The notes under the pieces: model-generated
Database searches by the model: none
The model's input: only the letters and a program-made list of their open reading frames with translations
Told to the model about the DNA's origin: nothing
Translations under genes and position numbers: made by a program
Shown: positions 35,624 through 51,655 of the stretch, in pieces
Layout of the letters: each line of letters opens with the position of its first letter
Position numbering within the stretch: the first letter of the stretch is position 1
Assembly (NCBI RefSeq): GCF_900452395.1
Contig: NZ_UGNV01000001.1
Location: forward strand, 769,501-833,500
Reading direction: 5' to 3'
Length of the DNA stretch: 64,000 nt
Source: Legionella beliardensis
GTDB taxonomy: Bacteria; Pseudomonadota; Gammaproteobacteria; Legionellales; Legionellaceae

Positions 35624-36145
35624 TTAGCGATGCTTATCTCTATGATTAGGGTGGCTAACTAAGCGATTAGTAAAAGTAATTGCTAACGCTGAAACAACCA
35701 AGGTTAAATGAATAATGACTTGCCACATTACAGCATTATTACTTTGTTTGGTTGGATCGATAAAGGTGCGCAGTAAATGAATAGAAGAAATACCAATCAA
35801 TGCCACAGCTAATTTAACTTTCATAGCGCCTGCATCAAGGTGATCGAGCCACTCAGGTTGATCAGGATGAGATTGTAAATTTAAATCAGCAATAAACGTA
35901 TCATAACCGCCCATAATAACCATGATTAATAAATTGGCAAGCATGACGACATCGATCAAATCTAATACGCCAAGCATAATTTGCGTATCATTAAAGCCAC
36001 GAATATTTATAATTAAATGAAACAACTCATTAATAAATCGATAAGCATACGCCCCTAAAATAAAGATAAGCCCAACATACAATGGTGCTTGTAGCCAACG
36101 ACTAAAAAAGATAATTCTACTAAGTGCGATTTTTACGATATTCAT
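35624..36145 (-). CDS. YqhA/UPF0114-like inner-membrane protein
   Basis: 173 aa with four hydrophobic helices. The segment LDLIDVVMLANLLIMVIMGGYDTFI and the later WLDHLDAGAMKVKLAVALIGISSIHLLR are typical of the YqhA family (UPF0114). Function unknown. Single gene on the minus strand. Confidence 0.85.
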   Translation of the reverse strand: MNIVKIALSRIIFFSRWLQAPLYVGLIFILGAYAYRFINELFHLIINIRGFNDTQIMLGVLDLIDVVMLANLLIMVIMGGYDTFIADLNLQSHPDQPEWLDHLDAGAMKVKLAVALIGISSIHLLRTFIDPTKQSNNAVMWQVIIHLTLVVSALAITFTNRLVSHPNHRDKHR

Positions 36146-36337
36146 TTAAAGCTAAACCTGTGCGGGTCAAAATGGGTATCTTATGTTAGTTAATTAATTG
36201 AAGCAAACAGATTAATAACAGAGTACACTGTTTTTATTATTTGCGGTTCGTTTAATAAATTTGCCCTTGTCGCTAAAGCGCTGGTGAGCGTAATAGAGGG
36301 CTAGCTACTCAATAATCATTTGTCTTAGTATTAAAAT

Positions 36338-37336
36338 TTATTTATGAACCTGCCAAAGTGAATCAACAAAATATTTTTTTGAGTCAAAAAAATTCTTGAT
36401 GATAGAAAAACCATTCTCCTGCGCAAAGTCAGAAATTTGAGACAGTAAGTATTTGTATGAAAATTCTAAATGTATCGGTTCAAATTCATTAAAATGAAAT
36501 GCGCGGTCTAGGTCTTTAATAAAGATTGTTTGTTCTTGTGAACTTATAAGATAACTTTCCATAGCGCCTGAATAAACATTATACGGGGCATAATGATAAA
36601 ATAATTCTGGTTTAAAATTAGCACCTAGTTCTCTATTTAAACGATGTAATAAATTATAATTAAATTTTCGGGTAATCCCATCGCTGTCATTGTAGGCTCG
36701 TAATAAGATATCGATATCTTTACGTAAATCAAAGCCAATTAAAAAATAATCCCCATCGTTTAAATCTTGCCAAATTTCACGTAAAAAGGATTGGGTGTTC
36801 TCAGGACTAAAATTACCAATGCTTGATCCTAAAAATAATAATAAATTTTTACGCACAGACTGGGTGTTTAACCATCTTAGCCCCTTAAAATAATCTGAAT
36901 TTAAGGCAATTAATTTTAAGTTAGGGAGATCGTGATTAAATTTTTTTACAATTTGATTGAGATATTTACGAGAAATATCAATTGTAAAATAAGTGAATTC
37001 GAGAGAATCTTGCAAAAATTGCTCAATAAGTATGCGGCTCTTAATTCCTTCTCCTGGGCCTAGTTCTATAAGATTGAAGCCTTGCTGGCCAAGTAGTTGT
37101 GACAATTCACCTTTATAGTTTCTTAAAATTTCTAATTCGCAGTTTGTTAAATAATAATCAGGATGGCGAGTTATCAGATTAAATAATTCACTGCCTTTCT
37201 CATCATAAAAATACTTAGATGAAATAAACTTATTGCTACTTGTTAAACCCGTTAATATGTCTGCTAAAAAAGTATTTCTACTGTCTTCAAGTGACGGTGG
37301 ATAATCTAAGGTAGTTATTTTTAAATTTTCATTCAT
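36338..37336 (-). CDS. egtD: L-histidine N-alpha-methyltransferase EgtD
   Basis: 332 aa, close to the usual EgtD length. SAM-binding IELGPGEG (90-97), KYFYDEKGSELF (41-52) and a DxR/Y-rich C-terminal region. EgtD trimethylates histidine to hercynine, the first step of ergothioneine synthesis. It lies 16 bp downstream of egtB; AAGGAGCATTCC precedes the ATG. No egtA, egtC or egtE is next to it. Confidence 0.92.
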   Translation of the reverse strand: MNENLKITTLDYPPSLEDSRNTFLADILTGLTSSNKFISSKYFYDEKGSELFNLITRHPDYYLTNCELEILRNYKGELSQLLGQQGFNLIELGPGEGIKSRILIEQFLQDSLEFTYFTIDISRKYLNQIVKKFNHDLPNLKLIALNSDYFKGLRWLNTQSVRKNLLLFLGSSIGNFSPENTQSFLREIWQDLNDGDYFLIGFDLRKDIDILLRAYNDSDGITRKFNYNLLHRLNRELGANFKPELFYHYAPYNVYSGAMESYLISSQEQTIFIKDLDRAFHFNEFEPIHLEFSYKYLLSQISDFAQENGFSIIKNFFDSKKYFVDSLWQVHK

Positions 37337-37352
37337 GGAATGCTCCTTTTCC

Positions 37353-38654
37353 TCAACAGTCCCTAGCTAAACGGATGCCACTAAACTGCCATCGTTTTTC
37401 TGGTTGATAGAAATTACGATAAGTTTTTCGAATATGTGCTTGTGGCGTTATGCAACAACCGCCCCGCAAGACATATTGGTTATTCATAAACTTACCGTTA
37501 TATTCGCCTATCGAACCCGCAAAGGGTTTATATTGAGGATAAGCTGAGTAAGGGCTTGCTGTCCATTCCCAAAGATCGCCAAAAAATTGGCTTACGCCAT
37601 GTGCTTTATTTGGCGCGGTGACAGGTTGGGGGTGGTATATACCTTGCTCTAAAAAATTACCTGTCAATAAAAGCTGATTATGAGTTACAAAATATTCCCA
37701 CTCTTCCTCGGTTGGTAAGCGACAGCATTGCCATCTTGCATAAGCATCAGCCTCAAAATAACTAATATGAGCAACAGGGTCGCCAAGATTGAGTGGTCTT
37801 AAACCTAATAAGGAAAACTCATACCAAAGGTTATCCATAAAAACCCAATAAAGCGGCTGAGTAATGGCATTATTTTGCACCCATGTCCAACCATCAGATA
37901 ACCATAAAACAGGATTTTTATACCCACCTGCTAAAATAAAATCCAAATATTCGCCATTGGTCACAAGCCTATTAGCAATAGCGTAATCAGCAACTAATTT
38001 TTGATGGCTAGGCAACTCATTATCAAAGCAAAAACTTTGACCTTGATAGCCCATTGTAAAGACACTGCCTGCTACTTCTGTAAAGGTCATTGGCAGATTT
38101 GCGCTACTTAATTTAAATGAATTTTTAGGCTTAAAATAAGTTGTGGGTTCACTATGTAGGGAAAAATTATACTTAATATCCATCAGTAATAACTCTTGAT
38201 GTTGCTGTTCATGCGCTAAACCTAAGGAAATTAAAGAATGTATTTTTTTTAAATCATTATAAGTTGCTTGGTTGATGACATTTAAAATAAGGTTATCGAC
38301 ATGCTGTCGATAACTATAGATTTCCTCAACCGCGGGTCTTGATAGTAAGCCGCGATTACAACGAGGGTAAGGATTATTAATACCTAAATAATAAGAGTTA
38401 AATAAATGATGGTATGACGGATTAAAGGCTTGGTAATTTTTAAGATTAGCAAGGATAAATGTTTCAAAAAACCAAGTCGTATGAGCAAGATGCCATTTTG
38501 GTGGACTAACATCTGGCATGCCTTGAATAACATAATCTTCAATGATGAGTGAATGACAAAGCGATTCAGTTTGCTGGCGTACAGATTGGAAAAAATGAGC
38601 AAGCTCATCCCTATCAATTTCTTCAGTGTAATCAATTTTCTGATTTAATTGCAC
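37353..38654 (-). CDS. egtB: Ergothioneine sulfoxide synthase EgtB
   Basis: 433 aa from a GTG start preceded by ATAGGAAAAATC. An N-terminal DinB-like domain carries the non-haem iron ligands, seen as H148xxxH152xE154 (GLAHEQQHQELLL) together with WHLAHTTWF (H55/H58). The C-terminal FGE-sulfatase domain has TNGEYLDF, YFEADAYARW, LPTEEEWE and a GGCC...R-YRNFYQP end. EgtB joins hercynine to a thiol through a sulfoxide using O2. Alternative: an OvoA-type partner, but OvoA normally carries a fused methyltransferase, while here EgtD is separate. Without egtA/egtC, cysteine may be the direct thiol donor, as in fungal Egt1 (inferred). Confidence 0.9.
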   Translation of the reverse strand: MQLNQKIDYTEEIDRDELAHFFQSVRQQTESLCHSLIIEDYVIQGMPDVSPPKWHLAHTTWFFETFILANLKNYQAFNPSYHHLFNSYYLGINNPYPRCNRGLLSRPAVEEIYSYRQHVDNLILNVINQATYNDLKKIHSLISLGLAHEQQHQELLLMDIKYNFSLHSEPTTYFKPKNSFKLSSANLPMTFTEVAGSVFTMGYQGQSFCFDNELPSHQKLVADYAIANRLVTNGEYLDFILAGGYKNPVLWLSDGWTWVQNNAITQPLYWVFMDNLWYEFSLLGLRPLNLGDPVAHISYFEADAYARWQCCRLPTEEEWEYFVTHNQLLLTGNFLEQGIYHPQPVTAPNKAHGVSQFFGDLWEWTASPYSAYPQYKPFAGSIGEYNGKFMNNQYVLRGGCCITPQAHIRKTYRNFYQPEKRWQFSGIRLARDC

Positions 38655-38988
38655 GATTTTTCCTATTTATCTGGTTAGGCCATTTAAAGGAGCTTTATAC
38701 CTATCTAAAATTATTTGCTCTTTTTAATGAGTATAGGTGTAATTTTAGATTTAATTTAAATACCAGATAGGCAGCAGTAAATTTAAGTTAAACTTTTTAA
38801 ATTTAGCTATTGCATTAGTCAGGCTATTGATTTTTAATTATTAACGGTGCCTAAAGGGAATTAATTGTAGATGGCATTACTTAACGTGAGCTCACTATAA
38901 AAAATAGGTATTATTTTTTTATATTGAACTGCTGCAAGGTCTATACTAATGATGGTAGCAAACTAAGAATAAGGACAAGGAGGGTGTA
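38655..38988. other. Intergenic region between egtB and the Thr/Gly-repeat gene
   Basis: Divergent promoters. It includes the SigmaS-like -10 at 38941-38947 for the rightward gene. No gene or repeat seen otherwise. Confidence 0.5.
38941..38947 (+). promoter_or_regulatory. CTATACT, SigmaS-type -10 element
   Basis: The exact consensus for the extended -10 of RpoS-dependent promoters, 42 bp upstream of the ATG of the next gene. No strong -35 at standard spacing, which is usual for such promoters. By eye only. Confidence 0.4.
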
Positions 38989-39357
38989 ATGGCAGACCAT
39001 AATTCAAGTAATAACGTAGCTATTGTTGCAATAGTAGTCATTGTAGTTATTATTGGCGTAATTCTTTATTATGTTTTAGGTGATCATCCTAACACTATCA
39101 ATACCACAACTACACCCGCACCAGGAAATAACACAATTAATGTTGAAACACCTAGTACTACTGTGCCTGCATCGGATACTTCTGTAAACACTACAACAAC
39201 GACAACGACTGGTACACCAGATACGACAGGTAATGGAGCGGCTGGAACTGGCACAGGAACAGGAACTACGGGCACGAGCACGACTGGTACTGGAACCACT
39301 GGTACAGGCGCTGGAACTACCGGAACTGGAACTACTGGTACTGGCACCAATCAATAA
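38989..39357 (+). CDS. Membrane-anchored Thr/Gly-repeat protein
   Basis: 122 aa. One helix at 10-29 (VAIVAIVVIVVIIGVILYYV) after a short hydrophilic start, then a long Thr-, Gly- and Asn-rich tail with TGTG/TTGTG repeats (from about residue 62). With the N-terminal anchor the tail is probably periplasmic and disordered, likely O-modified or wall-associated (inferred). AAGGAGGGTGTA precedes the ATG, a very strong ribosome binding site. No family recognised. A perfect bidirectional hairpin follows. Confidence 0.7.
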   Translation: MADHNSSNNVAIVAIVVIVVIIGVILYYVLGDHPNTINTTTTPAPGNNTINVETPSTTVPASDTSVNTTTTTTTGTPDTTGNGAAGTGTGTGTTGTSTTGTGTTGTGAGTTGTGTTGTGTNQ

Positions 39358-39380
39358 TCGGCTCTGGGTTTAAATTATGG

Positions 39381-39414
39381 AACAATAAGAAGAACCTAGG
39401 TTCTTCTTATTGTT
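39381..39414. terminator. Bidirectional terminator
   Basis: A perfect 34-nt palindrome (16-bp stem AACAATAAGAAGAACC, TA loop) between two convergent genes. AT-rich ends provide A- and T-rich flanks on both strands. Confidence 0.8.
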
Positions 39415-39450
39415 AAGTAAGATACTTGGCTGTTAATTTTAGCTGAGCCT

Positions 39451-40134
39451 TTATTGAGCAGAATTAGAAGTGCCTGTTGTATCCGAGGTGTTAGATGAAT
39501 TAGTAGCAGAATTATCATTTGTTTGCTTATCTAATTTCTTTTGAATTGCTTGTGCATCTTTTAAATGTTTAACTAAATGTTTACGCGTGCTAGTTAAATG
39601 CTCTTTAAGTTTTTTATTGCCAGCATTTGGTATTAAAGTATTATCAAATAATTGAATTGCGGCATTATGATCGTTAACCATTGCATCAATATAAGCTTTA
39701 TTAAGTGCTGCGCCTGATAAAGGATTTAAAGTAGCTAATTCATTTTCACCATGCTGTTTTAAACTATTCGCGGTATCATTTTGAACCGGTGCACCAATTT
39801 TACGGCTAAGCTTTAAGGTTTCTTTTAAATTCTTATTGTGCTCTTTAGAAAGCATTTTTGCATAGCTTGCTACAGACGAATTAACACCTTTCTTTTTAGA
39901 CACAAGATCTGCTGCTGAAATTTCATTTTGATTTAATACCACAAGAACAGCTAATATTTGACCATCCATTTGGTTTTTTTGTGTATTATTATTTTGTGCG
40001 CCAGTTGTATTAGTTTGCTGATTAGTAGTACTCGTACTTTGATTAGTGCTGCTGGTGTTTTGCGTATCGGCTGCAAAGACAGTGGGAAGAGAAAAAGTAG
40101 AGCATAATACTAACGTAATTAACTTCAGTTTCAT
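39451..40134 (-). CDS. DUF4142 periplasmic protein
   Basis: 227 aa. The start is at ATG 40134 (AAAAGGAATTTAAC before it), giving a signal peptide MKLKLITLVLCSTFSLPTVFA; an upstream start at 40179 has no support. A Ser/Thr/Asn/Gln-rich linker is followed by the DUF4142 (ferritin-like four-helix) domain with SKEHNKNLKETLKLSRK and VNDHNAAIQLFDNTLI, then a low-complexity end rich in Ser, Asn and Thr. Often linked to envelope or oxidative stress; function not established. Confidence 0.8.
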   Translation of the reverse strand: MKLKLITLVLCSTFSLPTVFAADTQNTSSTNQSTSTTNQQTNTTGAQNNNTQKNQMDGQILAVLVVLNQNEISAADLVSKKKGVNSSVASYAKMLSKEHNKNLKETLKLSRKIGAPVQNDTANSLKQHGENELATLNPLSGAALNKAYIDAMVNDHNAAIQLFDNTLIPNAGNKKLKEHLTSTRKHLVKHLKDAQAIQKKLDKQTNDNSATNSSNTSDTTGTSNSAQ

Positions 40135-40551
40135 GTTAAATTCCTTTTGAGTTGTAATAACAGATTGACTGTATAGCATAAATGGAATAATTGATCTATG
40201 GCTAAAGATAATTAGTCTTTTCGTATTTTAACTAAGAGTAATTAACTGCCATAGCCGCAATTATTTGTTAATTTTTTAGATTTAAGAATAGTTGAGATTA
40301 AAACAAATCATTTATCTTCCTGTGCAATGAATAAGGCTTCCTAGATTTTCACTTGGTGAAGGTTCGCCATGACACTGCAACTTAGCAAGCATGCAAGAAG
40401 GCTAGTTGCTATTTTCCTAATTCTTTTAAGAATATTGAGATGGTTTGTTGCTGAAGGTAGATAATTTAAATTATAGTAATAAAACTATTAGAGCACTAAA
40501 TACACGAAATATGGTTAGTTAGTTTAAATTACTTTCATTAAGGGTAACAAA
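40135..40551. other. Intergenic region before the exopolysaccharide operon
   Basis: It contains the leftward promoter of the DUF4142 gene, with TGCTATACA (40170-40176 on the minus strand, one mismatch to the SigmaS -10), and a short copy of the TTCACTTGGTGAAGGTTCGC repeat family near 40335-40372. The right half is AT-rich and should hold the promoter of the exopolysaccharide operon; no clear element seen. Confidence 0.45.
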
Positions 40552-42978
40552 GTGAAATGCTTATCATGGAAAGATATTATCGTAGCAGGACTTATATTCA
40601 CTTCTCCTATTGCGTTAACCCAAGAAGCCAATGTAGACAATGAAATTGATTTACAGGGTATAAAATTAAGTCAATTAGAGCCTATCCCAAGTTTAGAAAC
40701 CATTGAACCCAACGCCGATGGGCAGGATAGCGCTTATACCGTTGAACAGCTTAATTTGCACAATATGAATGTATTGCACGAGGATAGAATAAGTCTCTCT
40801 CTTGCTATGGCATTAACTCAAGCAGCTAATGTAGAAAATGAAATTGAGCCGCAGGGTATAAAATTAAGCCAATTAGAGCCTATCCCAAGTTTAAAAACGA
40901 TTAAACCCAAAGCAGACCTTGATAGTCAATTTACTAGTACCTTTACATTTAAGCAGCTTAATTGGAATAGTAATAATGTGTTGCGCGGCGATAGAGCGAC
41001 TACCTCTTTTTATTTACCGGTTCCAATCCAATGGCAGTTTAAAGAGGCTAAATTAAACTTAGTAATTTCTCATTCGCCACTACTATTGCCTATATCTAAC
41101 CTTAATCTAGAGCTAAATGATAAGCCTGTGTCTTCTTTAGCTTTAACGCAAGAAAATACGAACTCTACACCTTGGACTATTCCTTTACCTATTGATGCCT
41201 TTAAGCAAGATTGGATTTCTTTAAACCTAATTGGTTTTCTTCGCGTTTCAGATGATCCCTGTAAAGATTATGACAACCCTAGTAATTGGGCCTTAATCTC
41301 ACCAGACTCAACCCTAACCCTATCCTATAAGATTAATGCGTTTAAGCCTAATTTAGCTAATCTACCTTATCCTTTTATTGACAAAAATTTACTGTCGTCT
41401 GCGTCATCTTTACTTGTTTTACCGTCTGATCCTTCCTTCAGTGAACTGGTAGCTGCATTAAAAATAGCTCGAGCTTTCGGTGCTCAGTTAGGACTAAATC
41501 AAATGAATCTAACAGCAAAGCTAGCGAACACAGTCAGCGAAGGAGAAAAAGCAAAGAATAACCTTATTTTTGTAGGCAAGAGTGAGCAATTTTCTTACCT
41601 AGATGCAAATTTTACAAAAAACGCGATTATCAATGACCAGGCAAAAAATGGATTACCTAGTGATTTAGGGATTATTCGTCTGCTTGTTTCACCATGGAAT
41701 CCAATACGTGGGCTATTAACAATTACTGGTAATTCTGATTTGGCTGTTATAAAGGCTGCGAATTCTTTTGCTACACCTCAATCTAGGCTTCTTTTACAAG
41801 GCCAGTCAGTTTTAGTGACTGAAAATTCATTGCCTAAGACATTTAATGAGCAAGTAGTGAATACAGCGCCCATATCTTTAAAAGATTTGGGTTATCAAGA
41901 TCAAACCGTATTAGGATTGGGCCACAATAGCTTATCTTATACGTTTACCCTTCCTAATAACCAAGTACCTAAGAACATCATTTTAAATACTTTGTTAAGC
42001 CATTCTGTGTTTGATTATAAAGATCGCTCCATGCTGACTGTATCTGTGAATGATGTTAAACAAGCCTCACTGATATTAGTACCGCTAAATGAACAAGACT
42101 CTAGATGGAAAGTCCAGATTTCTGGTGATGCATTAAGGCCAGGAAAAAATACACTAAGTTATAGTTTTGATTTACATGTCCCACAGGAAGGTTGTGCAAC
42201 TCGTTATTATTATCAAGCCTGGGGCGTTATACATGGCGAAACAACGCTACAAGCAAGTTTTAATGAAGAGCTGCCTCATATTACTTTAAATCAGTTTCCT
42301 ATGACAGTTGGTAAAGGGACGCTCGTTATTTTGCCACAAAAATTTACTGGTCTTAAAATCGGAGAATTAATAAACTTTTTCTTAAAATTAGGGCAATCTC
42401 TGGGAGTAGAGTCTCAGGCAATTGAAGTTGCTAGCTCAAATGAGGTAACAGAAGACAAACTTAGAGAAGTTAACACCATTATTATTGGAACCGCGGAAAA
42501 TAATCCTTGGGTAGCGAAAGTAATGAATAATGCACCGATAAAAATCCAACAAGGAAAAATAAGTGTTGCTAGTCAAAATGCTAATCTTGCTATTTCCGCG
42601 CTAGAGTCCTTAGGTGTCGTTGAGTTAATCGATTCACCGTGGAATAAAAATCATAATACTCTATTAATTACAGGCACAGATAATAATGCTGTAAGCCAAG
42701 CTATGAATTTATTAGTGGATAATCAGGTTAAATCCACATTACGTGGTAACGTTGCAACGATAGACCAACAGGGCAGTATCGCTACTTATGAAACGCGGTT
42801 GGATGTGCAAAATGAAGCTAAGTCATCAGCCAATTCAAGTACACCATCGTTAAATAAAATAGGTGGTTTTGCTTCTTATGCTTATCAAAATATTGTCTAT
42901 ATCGTAATTATCATCTTCTTAATTATTGTTATTATTCTAGCAATTGTGGGCTTTTTCTTAAGGCGTCGCACAAACTAA
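40552..42978 (+). CDS. BcsB-like cellulose synthase regulatory subunit
   Basis: 808 aa from a GTG start (AAGGGTAACAAA before it). Signal-like N-terminus (WKDIIVAGLIFTSPIALTQ). The body has the tandem carbohydrate-binding/ferredoxin-like organisation of BcsB: FKEAKLNLVISHSPLLLP, NVLRGDRATTSFYLPVP, NGLPSDLGIIRLL, GCATRYYYQAWG and several G-x-L-x-I-SPW-x-P/LLITG repeats (SPWNPIRGLLTITG; SPWNKNHNTLLITG). One C-terminal helix (YIVIIIFLIIVIILAIVGFFL) ends in RRR. BcsB sits in the periplasm and guides the growing polymer. Residues 21-86 are duplicated at 87-152. It lies directly upstream of NfrA/NfrB-like genes instead of bcsA. Confidence 0.82.
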   Translation: MKCLSWKDIIVAGLIFTSPIALTQEANVDNEIDLQGIKLSQLEPIPSLETIEPNADGQDSAYTVEQLNLHNMNVLHEDRISLSLAMALTQAANVENEIEPQGIKLSQLEPIPSLKTIKPKADLDSQFTSTFTFKQLNWNSNNVLRGDRATTSFYLPVPIQWQFKEAKLNLVISHSPLLLPISNLNLELNDKPVSSLALTQENTNSTPWTIPLPIDAFKQDWISLNLIGFLRVSDDPCKDYDNPSNWALISPDSTLTLSYKINAFKPNLANLPYPFIDKNLLSSASSLLVLPSDPSFSELVAALKIARAFGAQLGLNQMNLTAKLANTVSEGEKAKNNLIFVGKSEQFSYLDANFTKNAIINDQAKNGLPSDLGIIRLLVSPWNPIRGLLTITGNSDLAVIKAANSFATPQSRLLLQGQSVLVTENSLPKTFNEQVVNTAPISLKDLGYQDQTVLGLGHNSLSYTFTLPNNQVPKNIILNTLLSHSVFDYKDRSMLTVSVNDVKQASLILVPLNEQDSRWKVQISGDALRPGKNTLSYSFDLHVPQEGCATRYYYQAWGVIHGETTLQASFNEELPHITLNQFPMTVGKGTLVILPQKFTGLKIGELINFFLKLGQSLGVESQAIEVASSNEVTEDKLREVNTIIIGTAENNPWVAKVMNNAPIKIQQGKISVASQNANLAISALESLGVVELIDSPWNKNHNTLLITGTDNNAVSQAMNLLVDNQVKSTLRGNVATIDQQGSIATYETRLDVQNEAKSSANSSTPSLNKIGGFASYAYQNIVYIVIIIFLIIVIILAIVGFFLRRRTN

Positions 42979-43014
42979 GGACATAGGTCTATGGTTAGCA
43001 TATAAGGTATTGCT

Positions 43015-44907
43015 ATGGCAAAAGCACATCGTGCAAAAGGTTTGCTGATAATTGGCGTAATTATTAAAAGCCTAGTAATTGAGTTTACTGCCTATATACC
43101 TATTCTTTTTGCAGCACAAGGCCCTGATAAAACAGCAAAAGCGCCTTCTGTTCCGGCCGTTGTTATTAAAGCTCAACTGGGTAAATATTACGAGCTTAAA
43201 AAATTAGACGCAAAAGAGGCTAAAAAGCTGCTTGAAATTATTTTGCAAGAAGATCCGCAAAATATACAGGCAAATAAAGAAATGGGCTACGTTCTTTTGG
43301 AAGAGAATAAACTCAACGAGGCTAAAAATTATTTCAACAAAGTTTTAAAGATTAATCCAGACGATAAAGTTATTGTAAGCCAGATTAGATATATTGATGC
43401 GCGCATACACGCAAGTATCATAACCGCTACAATAAATGCAGCTGCTAATAAAAGCCCTACAAATGCTATCACCGTAACCGCGCAAAATCCTATGGATAAA
43501 TATTTTGAATTAAAGAAAAGTCGCCCAGAGGAAGCCTTTAAATTATTAAAAGAAATTTTGCGAGATAATCCCAATAACGAGATGGCTAATGCAGAAATGG
43601 GATATCAATTACTCAATCAAAAGCGTACCGAATTGGCGTTAGATTATTTCAAACTTGTTTTAAAAATTAATCCAAAAAATAACGTAATTCGAGAGCAAAT
43701 TAAGAGCATGCAAACCACCGAACAAGGTACAGCAACTGGTGCGGTGCAACAGGCTAAATCCATGCCGCAATTGCCAGAAGACGAGCGATTATTAAATGAG
43801 TACTATAATTTACGTAAAACCAATCCTAAACGAGCCTTGCAGCTTCTATATAAATTGGTTTTCCGCTATCCACATAAAGTAGTCGCCCAGCGCGAACTTG
43901 CTTATTTATTATTAAAAGAGAAAAAATTAGAACTCGCTCTTTACCGCTTCTATATTATAGAAAGGCTATTACCTAAGGATTATGAGATTAAAATGCAAAT
44001 TGGTTATATACTGGATAATTTAGGTAGAAAGCCACAAGCTTATAAATACTTTTCTAGTGCAACCTATACCTCTGATCCTGAATTAAAATTAAAAGCTAAT
44101 CGTGCCATGACTAGCTTATCGGGGCTACAAACCAAAATTATTTCTAAACCTTGGTTCGCTGACGTTTATTATGCGCCAATTTACCTTTCGCGCTTTAATT
44201 TAGGTATTTTTCCGAGCCAAGTACGATTAGGTCGAACCTTTGGCGAGCGTAGTCAAGGTGAGGTTTATGCAATTAATCGTACGACCTGGGATAGTAAATC
44301 AGGTCAGCGCGATCAAAATCAGCTGCCACAAATCTTTGAGGATAATGTTTCGATAACCGCGTTAGGTATACGTTATTCACCTTTTCAGAAGCTGCCAAAT
44401 TTAAGGTTATATATTGAAGGCGGTAGAGCTTACGATCTAATTGCACGAGAGCCTAATCCTAATCGCCGTTATCGAAATGATTTAAGGGGCGGTTTACTTT
44501 ACGGCGCTATTTGGGGCGCTCCTCATGATTATGTCAATACCTGGACATTTCCTTTTAAGGAAGTTGGCAACGCTTATTTAGATATATCTTATTTTTCTAG
44601 GTACGATGATAACATCATTGGTTACGGTAGTATTCGAGAGGGATTGCGAGTTTTAGAGTTTCTCACTGCTGAGCTTAATATCTATTTAAGAGGAAGGGGG
44701 GGACTTGATAAAAACAAAGAGTTTTATAATAACTTTGTTGAATATGGTCCTGGTATCGAGTTTATTCCCAATAATCGTTATAACTTGTCTTTTCGTTTTG
44801 AATATTTAAACGGTTATTATATAAAAGTTAATAGCCCTTCTCCTAATCCTTATGGGCCACGCTATCATAATAAGTTAACAACGGCTGAATTATACATTTA
44901 TTTTTGA
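43015..44907 (+). CDS. NfrA-like protein: TPR domain plus outer-membrane C-terminus
   Basis: 630 aa. It has an N-terminal hydrophobic export segment (about 8-34). Three ~95-residue repeats follow (each starting KYYELKK, KYFELKK or NEYYNLRK and containing ANKEMGYVLLEENKLNEA-like TPRs). The C-terminal half (from KPWFADVYYAPIYLSRFN, about residue 380) resembles the NfrA C-terminal domain of the phage N4 adsorption protein, with VRLGRTFGER, EGGRAYDL and a last residue F, typical of an outer-membrane barrel. In E. coli NfrA exports the NfrB-made glycan. AAGGTATTGCT precedes the ATG; 36 bp after the BcsB-like gene, and its stop lies 8 bp before the next ATG. Confidence 0.8.
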   Translation: MAKAHRAKGLLIIGVIIKSLVIEFTAYIPILFAAQGPDKTAKAPSVPAVVIKAQLGKYYELKKLDAKEAKKLLEIILQEDPQNIQANKEMGYVLLEENKLNEAKNYFNKVLKINPDDKVIVSQIRYIDARIHASIITATINAAANKSPTNAITVTAQNPMDKYFELKKSRPEEAFKLLKEILRDNPNNEMANAEMGYQLLNQKRTELALDYFKLVLKINPKNNVIREQIKSMQTTEQGTATGAVQQAKSMPQLPEDERLLNEYYNLRKTNPKRALQLLYKLVFRYPHKVVAQRELAYLLLKEKKLELALYRFYIIERLLPKDYEIKMQIGYILDNLGRKPQAYKYFSSATYTSDPELKLKANRAMTSLSGLQTKIISKPWFADVYYAPIYLSRFNLGIFPSQVRLGRTFGERSQGEVYAINRTTWDSKSGQRDQNQLPQIFEDNVSITALGIRYSPFQKLPNLRLYIEGGRAYDLIAREPNPNRRYRNDLRGGLLYGAIWGAPHDYVNTWTFPFKEVGNAYLDISYFSRYDDNIIGYGSIREGLRVLEFLTAELNIYLRGRGGLDKNKEFYNNFVEYGPGIEFIPNNRYNLSFRFEYLNGYYIKVNSPSPNPYGPRYHNKLTTAELYIYF

Positions 44908-44915
44908 GTGGAGCG

Positions 44916-46748
44916 ATGGAATTACATTTAATCATGTGGTGGCTACTGATGGCAGTAGCAATTTTAATACTTCTATCCTCATTAGATGAATTCTATTTTG
45001 ATGTTGTTTTTTTTATAAACTCGATATGGAAAAAAATTAAGCAGTTAAGATATCATTATCAGCCTTTAACCCTGGAGCAACTGGATGCAGTTCCTGAGAA
45101 AAAAATAGCTATTATGGTGGCTTGCTGGAGTGAGCATTTAGTCATTGAAGACATGTTAAAACATAATATTCCAGCGATTCATTATACCAATTATGACTTC
45201 TTTATTGGTGTTTACCCAAATGATCCTCTAACCATTGAAGCTGTAGAGCGAGCAAAAGAGCTTTTTAGTAATGTTATTCCTGTCGTCACAAAACTACCAG
45301 GGCCAACTACAAAAGCAGATAACCTTAATAATATTTACCATTTTATTCTTAAGCGTGAGAAAGAAAATAACATTCAGTATGAAATATTTTTGTTTCATGA
45401 TGCTGAAGATGTTATTCATCCGCTATCACTAAAATTATATAATTATTTAATACCTCGCAAAGATATGGTGCAAATTCCTGTGTTTCCTTTAGAGGTAAGC
45501 CACAGTTTTGCTACGCACTGGACTTACAATGATGAATTTGCTGAAAATCATACTAGGACAATGATTGCACGTGAAGTCATAGGAGGTTTAGTTACCTCAG
45601 CCGGAGTAGGTACAGGTTTTGCAAGAACTGCGATTGAGCTTCTAAGCAGAGAAAGTAAGGGCTCTCCTTTTAATGTGTCTTCTTTTACAGAAGATTACAG
45701 TGTGTCATTACGGATACGCGTATTAAAGCTTAAATCTATTTTTCTTGTACAAAAAATTATTCGTACCCAAACTAGGAAAAGATGGTGGTTTTTTGGTAAA
45801 TTAGTGCCGAAACCCGTAGCAGAGATGGTTGCTACACGCGCTTTATTCCCCACACGTTATCGCGCTGCAATTCGGCAGCGGGCTCGCTGGGTTATGGGGA
45901 TTACCTTTCAAGAATGGTATAATACCGGCTGGCCAGGAAATTTAGCAACACGCTATACCCTTTTTCATGATCGCAAAGCGGTTGTTACCCATTTAATTAA
46001 CTTTATAGCCTATATATTATTTACATACTGGTTAATTTATTTTCTTGTTGATGCAAGGCCTACTTTTACAACCCTCATCAAGACTTATCCCTTCAGTAAG
46101 GTAATTATTCTAGCTTGTACATTAATGATGCTTTTTCGTTTATATCAACGAGCGGCAGCGACTTATCGAATTTATGGTTTATTAGCTGCTTTTTTAAGCA
46201 TACCGCGTTCGATTTATGGTAATTTAATTAATTTTCACGCGCTACTGAGAGCGTACCGAGCATTTTTTTTTACACCTAAAAAAGACAGTAAGTGGGATAA
46301 AACTAAAAATACTTTCCCAGGAAAATCAGCTTTAAAAAAATATAAGAAAAAATTAGGTGATTTATTGCTTGAAAATAAAGTAATTACCTCAGACCAACTG
46401 CATGAGGCATTAAAAGAGCAACATGCAACTCAAGAGCGATTGGGAAGAATCCTTATTAAGAACTATGGTATAAACCCGGATAAAATAATTCAATTTTTAG
46501 CAAATCAATATAATTTAGAGATTGCAGATCCAGAAAAATTCCCTGTACTAAAAAAGGAGCAATTAGAACATGTTTCTCTCGAGCATTATAATTGGTTGAT
46601 AAGCAATCAGATTTTTCCCATAGCTTATGCTAATAATATTATAACTTTAGCACTCACCGATCCTGCAAATGAGGACAATAGAAGAGAGGCTATAAACCGT
46701 TTAAAACCCTGTAATGTAAAATTTGTTTTGATGTCTAATGCTGTTTAA
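44916..46748 (+). CDS. NfrB-like glycosyltransferase with C-terminal MshEN domain
   Basis: 610 aa from ATG 44916 (a TTG at 44904 overlaps the nfrA-like stop). One N-terminal helix, a GT2 domain with HDAED (161-165), SFTEDYSVSLR (TED 258-260) and QRARW (321-325), then two to three helices (about 358-440). The C-terminal ~130 residues form a MshEN domain: KLGDLLLENKVITSDQLHEA (479-498), then KEQ and a five-residue spacer, then RLGRILIKNYGINPDKIIQF (508-527). This is the c-di-GMP-binding unit of NfrB and of MshE-type ATPases. In E. coli NfrB makes a ManNAc-containing receptor glycan for phage N4. In the first motif Lys replaces Arg and Asn sits where Gly is usual, so affinity may differ. Confidence 0.85.
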   Translation: MELHLIMWWLLMAVAILILLSSLDEFYFDVVFFINSIWKKIKQLRYHYQPLTLEQLDAVPEKKIAIMVACWSEHLVIEDMLKHNIPAIHYTNYDFFIGVYPNDPLTIEAVERAKELFSNVIPVVTKLPGPTTKADNLNNIYHFILKREKENNIQYEIFLFHDAEDVIHPLSLKLYNYLIPRKDMVQIPVFPLEVSHSFATHWTYNDEFAENHTRTMIAREVIGGLVTSAGVGTGFARTAIELLSRESKGSPFNVSSFTEDYSVSLRIRVLKLKSIFLVQKIIRTQTRKRWWFFGKLVPKPVAEMVATRALFPTRYRAAIRQRARWVMGITFQEWYNTGWPGNLATRYTLFHDRKAVVTHLINFIAYILFTYWLIYFLVDARPTFTTLIKTYPFSKVIILACTLMMLFRLYQRAAATYRIYGLLAAFLSIPRSIYGNLINFHALLRAYRAFFFTPKKDSKWDKTKNTFPGKSALKKYKKKLGDLLLENKVITSDQLHEALKEQHATQERLGRILIKNYGINPDKIIQFLANQYNLEIADPEKFPVLKKEQLEHVSLEHYNWLISNQIFPIAYANNIITLALTDPANEDNRREAINRLKPCNVKFVLMSNAV

Positions 46749-46773
46749 ATATTAATTTTAAGGCACCTAGATT

Positions 46774-47913
46774 ATGAAAATCTTTATTGTATTTGGTACT
46801 AGACCAGAAGCTATTAAGATGATTCCTGTTATTAAAGAACTAAAAAAAAGAAATTTTGCCCAAATAGAGATATGTATAACGTCGCAGCATACATTTATGT
46901 TACAACAAGTTTTATCGCTTTTTGATATTCAGTGTGATTATGATTTAAATATCATGAAATATGATCAAACGATCACAGAAACATTAACATCCGCTTTATC
47001 CGGTTTAAATGAGCTATTTCAGAAGCATAAACCAAATAGAGTCTTAGTTCATGGTGACACAACAACGACATTTGCAGGCGCGCTAGCTGCTTTTTATAAT
47101 CATATCCCTGTCGGCCATGTTGAAGCAGGCATACGAAGCCACAATATTTATTCGCCTTGGCCTGAAGAAATCAATAGAAAACTAGCAGGTACTATTGCCG
47201 ATTTACATTTTGCGCCTACCTTCCATACAGCAAAAAATTTATTATTAGAAGGGGTCAAGGAAAGTCATATCTATATTACTGGCAATACGGTGGTTGATAT
47301 CTTATTAGAAACCAAGAAAATAATCGCTAAACGTAGGATGAAAAAACAATTAGATGAGAAATTTTCCTACCTCGATCCACGTAAAAAATTATTATTAATT
47401 ACGGTGCATAGGCGCGAAATTTTTGGTAAATCTTTTGCAGCAATTTGCAAAGCATTGGCAGCAATAGCAAAATTCAACGATGTACAGTTGATTTTTCCAG
47501 TTCATTTAAATCCCCATGTTCAAGCGCCCGTTAAAAAATATTTATCTAATATTAAAAATATTTTTTTAATTGAGCCACAGGATTATTTCTCAATGCTTTA
47601 TTTAATGCAGCGTTGTTACGTGGTATTAACAGACTCAGGAGGCATCCAAGAAGAAGCGCCTGCCTTTAATAAACCTTTAATTGTAATGCGCGAAATAACA
47701 GAAAGAGTGGAAGGCTTGTCAGCAGGTGTTGCCAAATTAGTAGGTGTAAGAAAAGAAGGTATTGTGAAAGCAACTCAAGAGATTTTAGAAGATAGAAAAA
47801 TTTATGAGGCAATGGCGCGCGTAAGTAATCCCTATGGCGATGGCAAAGCAGCGCAAAGAATTGCTGATGTTATTGTTAACAGTCATAATATGGGTTTTTT
47901 AAATCAATTTTAA
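46774..47913 (+). CDS. wecB: UDP-N-acetylglucosamine 2-epimerase (WecB type)
   Basis: 379 aa, the usual length. Signatures: FGTRPEAIKMIPVI, HGDTTTTFAGALAAF, VEAGIRS, PEEINRKLAGTIAD and TDSGGIQEEAP. It interconverts UDP-GlcNAc and UDP-ManNAc in the cytoplasm. It is the fourth gene of the exopolysaccharide operon, 25 bp after the NfrB-like gene, and would supply UDP-ManNAc to that glycosyltransferase. E. coli NfrC, needed for phage N4 infection, is WecB. No other ECA or capsule genes are present. Confidence 0.92.
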   Translation: MKIFIVFGTRPEAIKMIPVIKELKKRNFAQIEICITSQHTFMLQQVLSLFDIQCDYDLNIMKYDQTITETLTSALSGLNELFQKHKPNRVLVHGDTTTTFAGALAAFYNHIPVGHVEAGIRSHNIYSPWPEEINRKLAGTIADLHFAPTFHTAKNLLLEGVKESHIYITGNTVVDILLETKKIIAKRRMKKQLDEKFSYLDPRKKLLLITVHRREIFGKSFAAICKALAAIAKFNDVQLIFPVHLNPHVQAPVKKYLSNIKNIFLIEPQDYFSMLYLMQRCYVVLTDSGGIQEEAPAFNKPLIVMREITERVEGLSAGVAKLVGVRKEGIVKATQEILEDRKIYEAMARVSNPYGDGKAAQRIADVIVNSHNMGFLNQF

Positions 47914-47945
47914 AAAACGTGTTTAATATAACTAATAGGAATAAT

Positions 47946-49967
47946 ATGCCATTAGCTTTAAAAGTATTCTCTTTTATGATTTTTTTTGTGAGTGCTTCTT
48001 TAAGTGCTACTACTATCAATGCTAGCGATAACTTGCATTTAGATTGGCTAGATACAAAGGTTGCTCCGGGTGAGAATTTTTACCGCTATGCAAACGGTAC
48101 TTGGCAAAAGAATAATCCTATACCACCTGATTACTCAAGTTGGAGTACGTTTAATAGTTTGCAACAACAAATCCAGGATAAAATTCATGACATGCTAATT
48201 AAAGCGGCTGCTAATAAGCAGGCCGTTTCTGGAAGCATTGAGCAGAAAATTGGTGATTTTTATTACAGTGGTATGGATGAAGATGCAATTAATAAATTAG
48301 GCGTGACACCACTGCAATCTTTTTTAGATCGTATTAATAGTATTCAAAGCTATGCTGATTTACAAACCGTGATAACCGAATTACAGCTAATCGGGGTCGA
48401 TGCCTTGTTTGGTTTTGGCAGCATGACAGATTATAAAAATAGCAAGCGTATGATTGGGGTTGCTATGCAAGGCGGATTAGGCTTACCTGACAGGGATTAT
48501 TATCTTAGCGATGATCCTAAGTTTAAAGCAATTCGTGATACTTATCTTAAACATATTACTCGTGTATTTGAGTTAGCAGGTGATAATCAAGCAACTGCCA
48601 AGCATGAAGCATCTGTCGTTATGGTAATAGAAACAGCTTTGGCAAAGGTTTCTATGTCGCAGGTTAAACAACGCGATATAAAAGCCACATTTAACATCAT
48701 GGATCGCAAGCAGTTAGAACAACTCACCCCTAATTTCTCTTGGCCAACTTATTTCGCTGCTATTGGTCTGGCTCATATCAAATCAATTAATGTCGGCATG
48801 CCTGATTTCTTTAAAGAAATGAGTAAAATGTTACAGGTTACCAGCCTCGAAGACTGGAAAATATATTTACGCTGGCACCTTTATGATGCATTTGCGTCTT
48901 ATTTAGCAAAACCGTGGGTTGATGAAAATTTTAATATGGTTACTGCTTTATCAGGCGCACAGCAGCTGTTGCCACGCTGGAAAAGGGTTGTTAATACGGA
49001 AAATAGCCTGCTAGGTTTTGCAATTGGTAAATTGTATGTAGAAAAGTATTTTTCTCAAAAAGAAAAACAGACAGTGTTAGCTATTTTACATAATATTCGT
49101 CAAGCATTGCAGCTCGATTTAAAAACCCTTAGTTGGATGACGCCAGCCACGAGACAAGCTGCTCTAAAAAAACTTGCCTTAATGGAAGAGCGGGTTGGCT
49201 ACCCAGATAAATGGCGTGATTATTCTAAGTTAAAAATTGATAGAGGCCCTTATGTATTAAATATTATCCGCGCTAATCAATTTTTAATTAAGCGCGATTT
49301 AAATAAAATTGATAAACCAGTAGATAGGGATGAATGGGGCATGACGCCACAAACAATTAATGCCTACTATGATCCTTCTATGAATAATATCAATATTCCT
49401 GCAGGCATCTTACAACCACCGTTTTTTGATCCTAATGCACCAGAGGCAGTTAATTATGGTTCCATTGGCTTTGTTATTGGACATGAAATAACCCATGGTT
49501 TTGATGATCAGGGTGCTCAATTTGATGGTCATGGTAATTTAGAAAATTGGTGGGCTAAAGAGGATTGGGCACGGTTTCATCAGGCAACGGAATGTATTGT
49601 CAAACAATATTCAGGCTATAAAGTAGATGGTTTGGCCATACAAGGAAATCTCGTAGTAGGCGAGGCAACTGCGGATTTAGGTGGGGTGTTATTAGCCTAT
49701 CTTGCTTTTCATCATTCGCAAGCGTATAAGCAGGCTAAAACAATTGACGGCTTTACCCCCGATCAGCAGTTCTTTCTAGGCGTTGCCCACGTTTGGGCAA
49801 GTAACATAAGGCCAGAGCAATTACGCAATGCCATAACGCTTGATCCACACCCGCCAGCAGCTTATCGGGTCAATGGTACGCTAGCCAATATTCCACAATT
49901 TGCAGCAGCATTTGGTATTAAGAAACCGAGCCCCATGATTAATGATGAGCGCTGCGTTATTTGGTAA
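47946..49967 (+). CDS. M13 family zinc metallopeptidase
   Basis: 673 aa, using ATG 47946 (TAGGA 5 bases before); an upstream GTG at 47919 is less likely. Signal peptide MPLALKVFSFMIFFVSASLSA. Zinc site H513E514ITH517, with E573 in GEATADLGG and the NAYY...NIPAGILQPPFFDP region typical of neprilysin-like enzymes. The C-terminal motif ends in CVIW. It would degrade small peptides in the periplasm or outside the cell. It begins 32 bp after wecB; co-transcription is possible, but no functional link to the glycan is evident. Confidence 0.92.
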   Translation: MPLALKVFSFMIFFVSASLSATTINASDNLHLDWLDTKVAPGENFYRYANGTWQKNNPIPPDYSSWSTFNSLQQQIQDKIHDMLIKAAANKQAVSGSIEQKIGDFYYSGMDEDAINKLGVTPLQSFLDRINSIQSYADLQTVITELQLIGVDALFGFGSMTDYKNSKRMIGVAMQGGLGLPDRDYYLSDDPKFKAIRDTYLKHITRVFELAGDNQATAKHEASVVMVIETALAKVSMSQVKQRDIKATFNIMDRKQLEQLTPNFSWPTYFAAIGLAHIKSINVGMPDFFKEMSKMLQVTSLEDWKIYLRWHLYDAFASYLAKPWVDENFNMVTALSGAQQLLPRWKRVVNTENSLLGFAIGKLYVEKYFSQKEKQTVLAILHNIRQALQLDLKTLSWMTPATRQAALKKLALMEERVGYPDKWRDYSKLKIDRGPYVLNIIRANQFLIKRDLNKIDKPVDRDEWGMTPQTINAYYDPSMNNINIPAGILQPPFFDPNAPEAVNYGSIGFVIGHEITHGFDDQGAQFDGHGNLENWWAKEDWARFHQATECIVKQYSGYKVDGLAIQGNLVVGEATADLGGVLLAYLAFHHSQAYKQAKTIDGFTPDQQFFLGVAHVWASNIRPEQLRNAITLDPHPPAAYRVNGTLANIPQFAAAFGIKKPSPMINDERCVIW

Positions 49968-50389
49968 TCACCTTGTTGTGTGGATACAATAAGTGATCAA
50001 AACGACCTTGTAGCCTGGGTGAAACGCAGTGAAACCCGGGTTCCGGCCCTTTGGGCCTGCGCCTGAGCTACATTTTAATTTATCTACGCAACAATAACCA
50101 TTAGTAATTGCCTGTCGATTAGTTAGATTAAACACTAAATCATGTTTAATCTAAGGTAATCAAAAATAGGAAAAATCGTTATTACGAGCCTCATCGGCGA
50201 AGGTTTAAAAGGGCAGCTAACAAATTGGTTAAATTGGCCTTAAAGCAAATGAACGTTTTTAGTACTAATTAAAGTTATTTTACGATAAACTATGCTTTTT
50301 TTATTAACAGCTTAATTGTTGTAAATGAAAATTCACTTAAAATATTATTATAATATAGTTGATTAGAATAATTTTTAATTAGGTAAAAA
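49968..50389. repeat. Intergenic region with a second enclosed AGCCTGGGT element
   Basis: The element spans about 49972-50096: TTGTTGTGTGGATA at the left, TATCTACGCAACAA at the right, and a ~62-bp core (50010-50072) in the opposite orientation to the copy at 30744-30864. The remaining ~290 bp are AT-rich, with no gene seen. Confidence 0.7.
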
Positions 50390-51157
50390 ATGAGCTATAC
50401 GATTTCAACATTCTATAAATTCACCCCTCTCCCCGCTTATGAAACGATGAAAGAACCGTTACTCATGGCTATGAAGGACAAGGATATTCGGGGCACAATT
50501 ATTTTAGCTGCCGAAGGGGTCAATGGTACATTTTGTGGCAGTGTTGAGGCAGTCGATTATTTAGAAAATTATTTAAGAAGTTATGCTAATTTAAGCGATT
50601 TATCGTTTCGTAGAACCTTTGATGATTTAAATCCTTTTGATAAAGCGAAAGTAAAATTACGTAAAGAAATTGTGACGCTAGGGGCACCTGAAGTGAACCC
50701 GGTAGAGCTTACAGGTACTCATTTAAACCCTGACGAATGGAATGAATTATTAGCTGATCCTAATGTGGTTGTTATTGACACTAGAAATGACTATGAGGTA
50801 AAGCTAGGTACGTTTAAGGGTGCAATAAACCCTGAGACTGAAAACTTTAGAGATTTCCCTGACTATGTTGCCAAACATTTAATCGACAAAAAAGATAAAA
50901 AAATTGCCATGTGTTGCACTGGTGGTATTCGTTGTGAAAAATCAACGTCGTATTTAAAAAAACTAGGTTTTGAACAGGTTTACCAATTACAAGGCGGTAT
51001 TTTAAATTATCTTGAAACTGTTCCTGTTGAAAAATCGAAATGGGAAGGGCATTGCTTTGTATTTGATGAACGCGTTGCGCTTGATCATGGCTTAAAGAGC
51101 TTAGCGAAGGGGTCAATTGATTCAGAGTGGAAAAATAAAAATAGAAAGAAAGCCTAA
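50390..51157 (+). CDS. trhO: tRNA U34 hydroxylase TrhO (rhodanese-like)
   Basis: 255 aa. An N-terminal acylphosphatase-like region, then a rhodanese domain with the active-site loop [11 protein letters not shown] and the [15 protein letters not shown] motif. This is the YceA/TrhO family, which forms 5-hydroxyuridine at position 34 of tRNAs using O2. An older annotation is rhodanese-related sulfurtransferase. Single gene; TTAGGTAAAAA precedes the ATG. Confidence 0.92.
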
Positions 51158-51346
51158 AGCTTGGCGGAAAGCGTTGATCACCCAAAAATCTTTAAAACTT
51201 AATTTAACTTAAAGATCTTTATTAAGAAATAGCATTAATTAAAGAAAGTGCAGATTCCTTTATTAACGTATCTATGATATGACCAAACTTGTTGAAAAGG
51301 GTTTGTTTATTGTTAATTTAATTAGTTCGTGCTAGTATTTTTTCTG

Positions 51347-51655
51347 ATGAAGACATCTATTATCAAGCTAATTAAATGCTTTCTTGTCTGCGGCTTAGCG
51401 CTACTTTTGTGTAAGCCCATGTTGTTCTATATGAGCAATCAAGGCTCTGCCACGACGCAATACACGCAAGCAACCGAATGCCCGACTCGGGCTGCAATTA
51501 ATGCTGTCTGCCAATCATCAACTTATTATACAGCGATAGAAAATGAATTAGGTTTTATGCCTTATCTATTCGTTGGGCTTGGGTTATTATTTTTTACACT
51601 AACTAAGTTCTCTTCATGTGCTCCTATTGAACGGCCTTTTAAGCCACCAATTTAA
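51347..51655 (+). CDS. Small membrane protein, unknown
   Basis: 102 aa from ATG 51347; a GTG at 51329 would add six hydrophobic residues. Two hydrophobic helices (about 5-27 and 71-86) flank a ~45-residue loop with two cysteines (C45, C55), plus a cysteine near the C-terminus. No clear ribosome binding site at either start. Not recognised. It precedes the DsbD-like gene by about 145 bp, so its loop cysteines might be oxidised or reduced by the Dsb system (speculative). Confidence 0.5.
   Translation: MKTSIIKLIKCFLVCGLALLLCKPMLFYMSNQGSATTQYTQATECPTRAAINAVCQSSTYYTAIENELGFMPYLFVGLGLLFFTLTKFSSCAPIERPFKPPI

What the first reader, a model, noticed from the sequence alone, without database searches (positions are those of the whole stretch)
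40552..47913. Hybrid exopolysaccharide operon: BcsB-like subunit with NfrA-, NfrB- and WecB-like proteins
Seen: four same-strand genes with gaps of 36, 8 and 25 bp. In E. coli, NfrB (GT), NfrA (outer membrane) and WecB (NfrC) are the set needed for the phage N4 receptor glycan, while BcsB is the periplasmic subunit of cellulose synthase paired with BcsA. Here a BcsB-like protein leads an NfrA/NfrB/WecB unit, and no BcsA, BcsC, BcsZ or pEtN gene is present. Inference: a ManNAc-containing polymer is made by the NfrB-like enzyme, guided by the BcsB-like protein and exported by the NfrA-like pore. I do not know of this combination being described as a system.
Basis: partly seen in the sequence, partly recalled or inferred. 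Interest (0 to 1): 0.85.

Follow-up and report, generated by a model that had tools for sequence, protein, structure and literature searches.

The report
BcsB-equipped Nfr-type exopolysaccharide operon
A four-gene unit in a Legionella-family bacterium very probably makes and exports a c-di-GMP-controlled, N-acetylmannosamine-containing surface polymer using a cellulose-synthase-type helper protein; the same gene combination is already in print for other bacteria, so this is a lean variant of a known system.

Summary
Window 40552-47913 carries bcsB-like, nfrA-like, nfrB-like and wecB genes on one strand. HMMs, key residues, profile comparison and AlphaFold models support the assignments; NfrA is a short, diverged type without the NfrA_C domain. 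The four genes are a discrete block: in two same-genus relatives the flanks are collinear and one unrelated gene stands in its place. Its WecB is the genome's only UDP-GlcNAc 2-epimerase. The arrangement is not unique: bcsB adjoins nfrA or nfrB at 8 of 25 examined Legionellaceae nfr loci and lies near NfrB at 15 of 80 named loci from several phyla. The novelty claim fails: Sellner et al. 2021 report bcsB clustered with nfrA/nfrB/wecB in Achromobacter, and 2025 Acinetobacter PGR work shows that the BcsB and WecB homologues of such a locus are needed for infection by a phage. In Listeria a GT2 + BcsB operon makes poly-ManNAc-Gal. What is new is modest: a minimal form without the YbcH/DUF4434 partner; a BcsB gained or lost repeatedly along NfrB history; and two BcsB lineages on one Nfr chassis, the window's being nearer to BcsBs of a GH81-containing operon (moderate support). 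New variant of a known kind; interest about 0.35.

The parts
40552..42978 (+). bcsB-like gene: periplasmic BcsB-fold subunit with one C-terminal membrane helix (strongest hydropathy at residues 781-799)
43015..44907 (+). nfrA-like gene: N-terminal hydrophobic segment, TPR array (residues about 48-367), C-terminal beta domain of about 12 strands (380-629), probable outer-membrane export pore
   Evidence: Pfam TPR; AlphaFold pLDDT 83.6, pTM 0.57; hhalign to E. coli NfrA family 99.0%, E=3.8e-18; BcsC 9b8a among Foldseek hits at rank 36, E=8.5e-7, but TM only 0.25-0.28; barrel closure not inspected
44916..46748 (+). nfrB-like gene: inner-membrane GT2 synthase with C-terminal MshEN-type c-di-GMP domain (alternative TTG start 44904)
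   Evidence: NF008411 448 bits, NF053729 61 bits; all 10 E. coli positions mutated in the 2021 papers (D169, D267, W330, L490, G491, L505, L509, L518, G519, L537) conserved; C-terminus matches solved MshE/PilB/PilF c-di-GMP domains
46774..47913 (+). wecB gene: UDP-GlcNAc 2-epimerase, the only one found in the genome
   Evidence: TIGR00236 474 bits against cut-off 210; one PF02350 match in the genome
40552..47913 (+). discrete four-gene block; in relatives G097 and G099 one opposite-strand gene stands between the same flanks
   Evidence: collinear flanks on both sides in L196 and L197, no bcsB/nfrA/nfrB/wecB there
47919..49967 (+). M13 peptidase: a flanking gene, not part of the unit, though only 5 nt downstream
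   Evidence: present at the same place in two relatives without the operon; found in 11 of 11 same-genus genomes; not in the G129 locus, where cytochrome b561 and YceI genes follow wecB

Best explanation
A minimal synthase-dependent exopolysaccharide machine of the Nfr/PGR type. WecB turns UDP-GlcNAc into UDP-ManNAc (shown by family membership only). The NfrB-like GT2 in the inner membrane, switched on when c-di-GMP binds its MshEN domain, polymerises a ManNAc-containing chain and passes it through the membrane (inferred from conserved residues and from E. coli and Acinetobacter genetics). The BcsB-like protein, anchored by its C-terminal helix, receives the chain on the periplasmic side (fold shown by model; contact inferred; that BcsB binds sugar chains with jelly-roll domains is recalled). 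The TPR/beta-domain NfrA-like protein exports it (inferred). The product is probably a surface glycan that restrains motility, aids aggregation or biofilm, and can be exploited by phages.
For: HMM, profile and fold support for each part. The genome's sole epimerase sits in the operon, matching the published rule that nfrB genomes without another wecB carry one beside nfrB. 15 GGDEF matches in the genome. Exact four-gene borders. Same order bcsB-nfrA-nfrB-wecB in G129. Published: the E. coli NfrB domain binds c-di-GMP, Kd about 1 uM, and NfrB needs its GT and MshEN; Acinetobacter pgrD (BcsB) and pgrF (WecB) mutants resist a phage; Listeria has a GT2+BcsB operon whose product is poly-beta-1,4-ManNAc with galactose.
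Against: Nothing here shows the sugar: NfrB substrate specificity is inferred from WecB linkage. NfrB falls below the NfrB equivalog cut-off (448 against 1170 bits) and NfrA lacks NfrA_C. Of six MshEN residues mutated by Sellner et al., most changes had no effect on phage infection (only G491L and G519S did), so conservation of all of them is weaker evidence than it looks. No wecB lies in the fetched stretch at 5 of 25 examined nfr loci (at two of them, L074 and L075, the contig ends about 1 kb or less beyond nfrA). 17 of 25 nfr loci have no BcsB beside them, so BcsB is not essential to the chassis. No expression or chemical data exist.
Confidence: 0.75

Rival explanations
1. The polymer is not ManNAc-based: NfrB uses another UDP-sugar (UDP-GlcNAc, UDP-Glc) and WecB serves something else, for example another cell-surface sugar, and merely shares the operon.
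For: No in vitro test of NfrB substrate appears in the sections and passages I read; 5 of 25 examined Legionellaceae nfr loci have no wecB in the fetched stretch.
Against: The wecB is part of the block and the genome's only epimerase; wecB near nfrB recurs in other phyla and wecB is genetically needed in E. coli and Acinetobacter.
Confidence: 0.2
2. A cellulose or beta-glucan system: the BcsB-like protein marks a diverged cellulose synthase operon.
For: BcsB is a strong domain hit, and its nearest BcsBs outside the G129 operon belong to a GH81 (beta-1,3-glucanase) operon.
Against: The GT is NfrB-type with MshEN, not BcsA with PilZ; no cellulase gene in the block; the epimerase would be idle; window BcsB scores only 83 bits with E. 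coli BcsB and 40 with the classical G085 BcsB, against 156-434 with the other Legionellaceae and L094 BcsBs of the same comparison.
Confidence: 0.05
3. A recently acquired cassette that is decaying or silent and makes nothing in this strain.
For: Only 1 of 11 same-genus genomes has a BcsB and two of the others show the site without the block; bcsB carries a 121-nt N-terminal duplication; split wecB, nfrA and nfrB copies are seen in some relatives.
Against: All four reading frames are open, catalytic and c-di-GMP residues of NfrB are kept, GC and GC3 are within the range of the window's other genes.
Confidence: 0.1

Closest known systems
Acinetobacter baumannii PGR locus pgrA-G (PMC12507263: section 11 and passages read)
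   Same: BcsB homologue (PgrD), NfrB homologue (PgrC), WecB homologue (PgrF), outer-membrane porin (PgrG); proposed ManNAc exopolysaccharide; pgrD and pgrF mutants resist phage StAb3, the pgrD deletion abolishes adsorption
   Different: PGR also has PgrA (degenerate GGDEF) and PgrE (PgaB-C-like); neither is in the window block. Sequence comparison with PGR was not made: I had no named Acinetobacter genome in hand
Achromobacter xylosoxidans nfrA/nfrB/wecB cluster with bcsB homologue (PMC8669472: section 9 read; its Fig S5 not seen)
   Same: same four protein kinds clustered
   Different: additional periplasmic O-acetyltransferase homologues; no gene order compared here
E. coli Nfr/NGR system nfrB-nfrA-ybcH plus wecB (PMC8669472 section 9 and PMC8669469 section 11, with passages; L172)
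   Same: NfrB GT2 + MshEN with the same key residues, TPR plus outer-membrane NfrA, WecB dependence, c-di-GMP control
   Different: E. coli has YbcH (DUF4434) and no BcsB in the operon; NfrA is 990 aa with NfrA_C; wecB sits in the ECA operon
Listeria monocytogenes pssA-E (PMC4125290 and PMC5039582: passages read)
   Same: GT2 synthase and a BcsB orthologue in one operon make a c-di-GMP-activated ManNAc polymer
   Different: Gram-positive (no outer membrane); c-di-GMP sensed by PssE; product carries galactose; PssC is compared there with IcaA/HmsR and BcsA, not with NfrB
Cellulose synthase BcsA-BcsB
   Same: BcsB fold over residues about 122-750 and a C-terminal membrane helix
   Different: partner synthase, c-di-GMP domain and precursor differ

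Membership tests
Nfr/NGR exopolysaccharide system | NfrB-type GT2 with active-site DxD, TED and QxxRW residues | tested here: met
   D162 (E. coli D169), T258-E259-D260 and Q321xxR324-W325 present
Nfr/NGR exopolysaccharide system | MshEN c-di-GMP domain on NfrB with the Leu/Gly positions studied in E. coli | tested here: met
   NF053729 over cut-off; 7 of 7 positions conserved; binding itself not tested
Nfr/NGR exopolysaccharide system | NfrB equivalog score (NF008411 cut-off 1170) | tested here: not met
   448 bits; none of 276 genomes of the class sample reaches the cut-off, the E. coli control does, so the cut-off is narrow
Nfr/NGR exopolysaccharide system | NfrA with NfrA_C (PF13283) | tested here: not met
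   no match in gene 2 or the genome; E. coli NfrA 228 bits; remote homology by hhalign 99.0%
Nfr/NGR exopolysaccharide system | YbcH (DUF4434) in the operon | tested here: not met
   no DUF4434 in the block; one unlinked copy elsewhere in the genome
PGR-type locus (BcsB + NfrB + WecB + porin) | all four protein kinds in one cluster | tested here: met
   the porin role of gene 2 rests on remote homology and a model
PGR-type locus (BcsB + NfrB + WecB + porin) | GGDEF-like PgrA and PgaB-C-like PgrE in the locus | tested here: not met
   block holds only four genes, with borders set by two relatives
Cellulose synthase (Bcs) | BcsB subunit | tested here: met
   Pfam and fold; far below NCBIfam cellulose-BcsB equivalog cut-offs (best 130 against 750)
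Cellulose synthase (Bcs) | BcsA synthase with PilZ as partner | tested here: not met
   the operon's GT is NfrB-type with MshEN; genome-wide BcsA search not made
WecB/MnaA epimerase | TIGR00236 over curated cut-off | tested here: met
   474 against 210 bits

The most novel reading that the evidence does not exclude
BcsB is an exchangeable plug-in of the Nfr secretion chassis. It has been gained or lost several times along NfrB history, and in this lineage the Nfr chassis carries a BcsB of the same stock as those of a GH81-containing operon instead of the BcsB type used by other Legionella nfr loci. The presence and lineage of BcsB would then decide whether the ManNAc chain is released loosely or laid down in a guided, cellulose-like ordered form.
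Probability: 0.3. Interest if true: 0.55.

Novelty: new variant of a known kind. Interest (0 to 1): 0.35.

Why it matters
It extends the ManNAc-glycan (NGR/PGR) machinery to Legionellaceae, for which two searches of the paper library found no report of this operon, in its smallest form with exact borders, and it adds to the evidence that BcsB is not a mark of cellulose. Genomes that have a BcsB hit without BcsA should not be annotated as cellulose producers on that ground. The natural with/without-BcsB series across 25 loci is a ready comparison set for what BcsB adds to a non-cellulose synthase.

Tried and rejected
M13 peptidase as a fifth operon gene: rejected, it is a fixed neighbour also where the operon is missing. 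A cellulose operon: rejected on GT type and BcsB distance. Foreign base composition as a sign of recent transfer: GC 35.8% for the block against 37.9 +/- 3.4% for 30 other ORFs of the window, uninformative. Fold search to name the NfrA beta domain: the TPR half fills both lists; a missing PgaA or AlgE row means nothing. Promoter and terminator scans were at chance level (36 found against 37.9 +/- 6.4; 8 against 7.6 +/- 3.0).

BcsB lineage test: with six distant rows in the tree, window + G129 group with the GH81-operon BcsBs (99/99) and one clade for all nine nfr-linked BcsBs is disfavoured (AU p=0.0137). Without those six rows the support is 92/95 and one clade is not rejected (p=0.119). The groups were named after seeing BLAST scores. 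So the lineage claim is moderate, and its direction is unknown. The tree rows were picked by me: 23 BcsBs, among them 1 of the 22 classical-level Legionellaceae matches.

Survey limits: BcsB calls beside Legionellaceae nfr loci used phmmer with the window protein, backed by the Pfam search. The named-locus survey used HMMs built from Legionellaceae proteins, so 15 of 80 is probably a lower bound, and the 80 are the best of 110 relatives. Of the 15, ten were checked with Pfam and all ten passed the cut-off; four (L092, L098, L099, L108) are contigs already counted in the order survey, whose BcsBs pass; L161 was not checked. L094 is likewise the same contig as G269 of the class sample. In L165 no NfrB ORF was recovered. 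Two of 27 nfrB loci (G008, G034; both start within 80 nt of a contig end) were not read for neighbours. G017 (NfrB in two pieces) was left out of the NfrB tree, which holds 24 Legionellaceae rows and 12 others that I picked; there the BcsB label needs 8 changes against a shuffled mean of 10.8 (30 of 500 shuffles as low), so it is only weakly clustered.

Papers: whole sections read: PMC8669472 section 9, PMC8669469 section 11, PMC12507263 section 11; passages: the same three, PMC4125290, PMC5039582, PMC5422440, PMC10172500. In PMC10620520 the terms looked up did not occur. All others were seen as search listings only. The library lacks most subscription journals; figures and supplements were not seen.
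Full report

Host. The window lies in a 3.54-Mb genome of the Legionellaceae: genomes of its family include Legionella wadsworthii, gratiana, worsleiensis and londiniensis, and its own genus in the tool's taxonomy includes L. gresilensis (G099); these names come from matching contig lengths. The species itself is not named by any tool.

Borders. In G097 and G099, two same-genus genomes, the five genes left of the block (35624 to 40179) and three right of it (47919 to 51655) are found in the same order, and instead of the four genes there is one opposite-strand gene of 335 or 336 aa with a weak adenylate/guanylate-cyclase-type match. So the unit is exactly four genes, and the M13 peptidase 5 nt downstream is a neighbour, not a part. 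G097 and G099 have a different nfrA-nfrB set, with wecB beside it and without bcsB, elsewhere, while the window's genome has only this one. Whether the block was gained here or lost there is not decided, but 10 of 11 same-genus genomes have no BcsB match.

Distribution. In 136 genomes of the order, NfrB is found in 25 and BcsB in 32; 22 rows of the BcsB table score 613-684 bits, and the one of these put in the tree (G085) groups with E. coli cellulose BcsB. At 25 of the 27 nfrB loci I read the neighbours: nfrA directly adjoins nfrB at 24 (in G017 both are partial or split) and is one gene away at one (G052, with bcsB between); wecB lies in the fetched stretch at 20; a BcsB adjoins nfrA or nfrB at 8 (window, G129, G033, G087, two each in G048 and G052). 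A BcsB 13 kb from nfrB in G119 is not counted. The head-to-tail order bcsB-nfrA-nfrB-wecB occurs in the window and G129; of the other six, bcsB is on the opposite strand in four and downstream of nfrB on the same strand in two. In a class-wide sample of 276 genomes, 6 have NfrB at E<=1e-60. BcsB is close by in 3 of them (the window; G269; G376, whose match is below the Pfam cut-off), on another contig in 2 (G280, G314), and not found in 1 (G157). Among 80 named NfrB loci (the best 80 of 110 found), 15 have a BcsB-like gene near NfrB, including Herbaspirillum, an Eremiobacterota MAG in the same order bcsB-nfrA-nfrB, two WOR-3 MAGs and six Armatimonadota or Fimbriimonas loci; ten of the 15 were checked with Pfam and all ten passed. 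The linkage is therefore widespread and not special to this genome.

History. On a tree of 36 NfrBs the with/without-BcsB state needs 8 changes, at least 7 forced by well-supported branches: BcsB comes and goes. Apart from the BcsB of G129 (434 bits), the window's BcsB is nearest to BcsBs of another Legionellaceae operon with GH81, found in five genomes (292-348 bits; GH81 confirmed in 5 of 5), with the G119 BcsB whose neighbours were not read falling among them (308 bits); then comes the nfr-linked BcsB of the MAG locus L094 (263), and only then those at the other Legionellaceae nfr loci (156-203 bits). The tree agrees with 99/99 support, or 92/95 when distant rows are dropped, but a single clade of nfr-linked BcsBs is rejected only in the first set (p=0.0137 against 0.119). 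I hold this as moderate.

Mechanism. Shown by sequence or model: protein families, conserved catalytic and c-di-GMP residues, sole epimerase, exact gene unit. Inferred: UDP-ManNAc as substrate, the BcsB-NfrB contact, export through the NfrA-like pore, c-di-GMP activation. The genome has 15 GGDEF matches, so the signal is probably available; none lies in the block. The YbcH-type (DUF4434) partner that stands beside nfrA in E. coli and in G314, G280 and G376 is not in the block, but one unlinked copy exists in this genome. In 136 genomes DUF4434 occurs in 4, all of them NfrB carriers, which hints at service in trans; three of the four are of one genus, so this is weak.

What is known. Sellner et al. 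2021 (PMC8669472, section 9) name a BcsB homologue in the A. xylosoxidans nfrA/nfrB/wecB cluster. The 2025 PLoS Pathogens paper (PMC12507263, section 11) describes the PGR locus with BcsB, NfrB, WecB and porin homologues and shows that the pgrD deletion abolishes phage adsorption and that a pgrF mutant is resistant. Junkermeier and Hengge (PMC8669469, section 11) report the nfrB-wecB linkage. In Listeria a BcsB orthologue and a GT2 stand in one operon (PMC4125290, passages) whose product is reported as beta-1,4-ManNAc with galactose (PMC5039582, passages). For Legionella, searches for Legionella with NfrB (1 paper, listing only, off-topic by title) and with BcsB (3 papers; two seen as listings, the third is PMC4125290) gave no report on this operon.

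Verdict. Real, complete and well delimited, but a lean variant of a published kind. Its worth lies in showing BcsB as a movable part on a ManNAc-type chassis.

Noticed in passing
L083:8511-18725, L084, L085, L086, L087 (Legionellaceae genomes G050, G074, G114, G066, G092): Another BcsB operon: BcsB, GH81 beta-1,3-glucanase (confirmed in 5 of 5), then in L083 a GT2 nearest to the PgaC/IcaA model, a large TPR protein, ATP-grasp and histidine phosphatase (other loci by gene sizes). A paper search for BcsB with GH81 gave none. Possibly an undescribed glycan system.
   Followed up: partly
window 40598-40718 and 40796-40916: 121-nt in-frame duplication (83%, offset 198 nt) at the 5' end of the bcsB-like gene, in a region of very low model confidence.
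   Followed up: partly
L193:7663-8730 (G000:C1:2009761-2010606): Unlinked DUF4434 (YbcH-family) gene in the same genome; the family occurs in only 4 of 136 genomes of the order, all NfrB carriers.
   Followed up: partly
L196:5323-6330 and L197:6534-7544: Gene with weak adenylate/guanylate-cyclase-domain match (21.6 and 24.0 bits, cut-off 21.9) standing in place of the operon in two relatives.
   Followed up: partly
   Followed up: no
L063:5624-6774, L093:7721-9619, G017:C17:26580-28423, G034:C110: Split wecB, nfrA or nfrB reading frames in some relatives, perhaps loss under phage pressure or assembly errors.
   Followed up: no
window 39247-39349: 51-nt tandem repeat giving a Thr/Gly-rich tail in the small gene 38989-39357; part of that protein is conserved in two relatives (61 aa, 85-93%).
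   Followed up: no
window 36338-38654: Two adjacent minus-strand genes that look like an EgtD/EgtB-type (histidine betaine) pair; names are recalled, no family search was run. The second is in 11 of 11 same-genus genomes.
   Followed up: no
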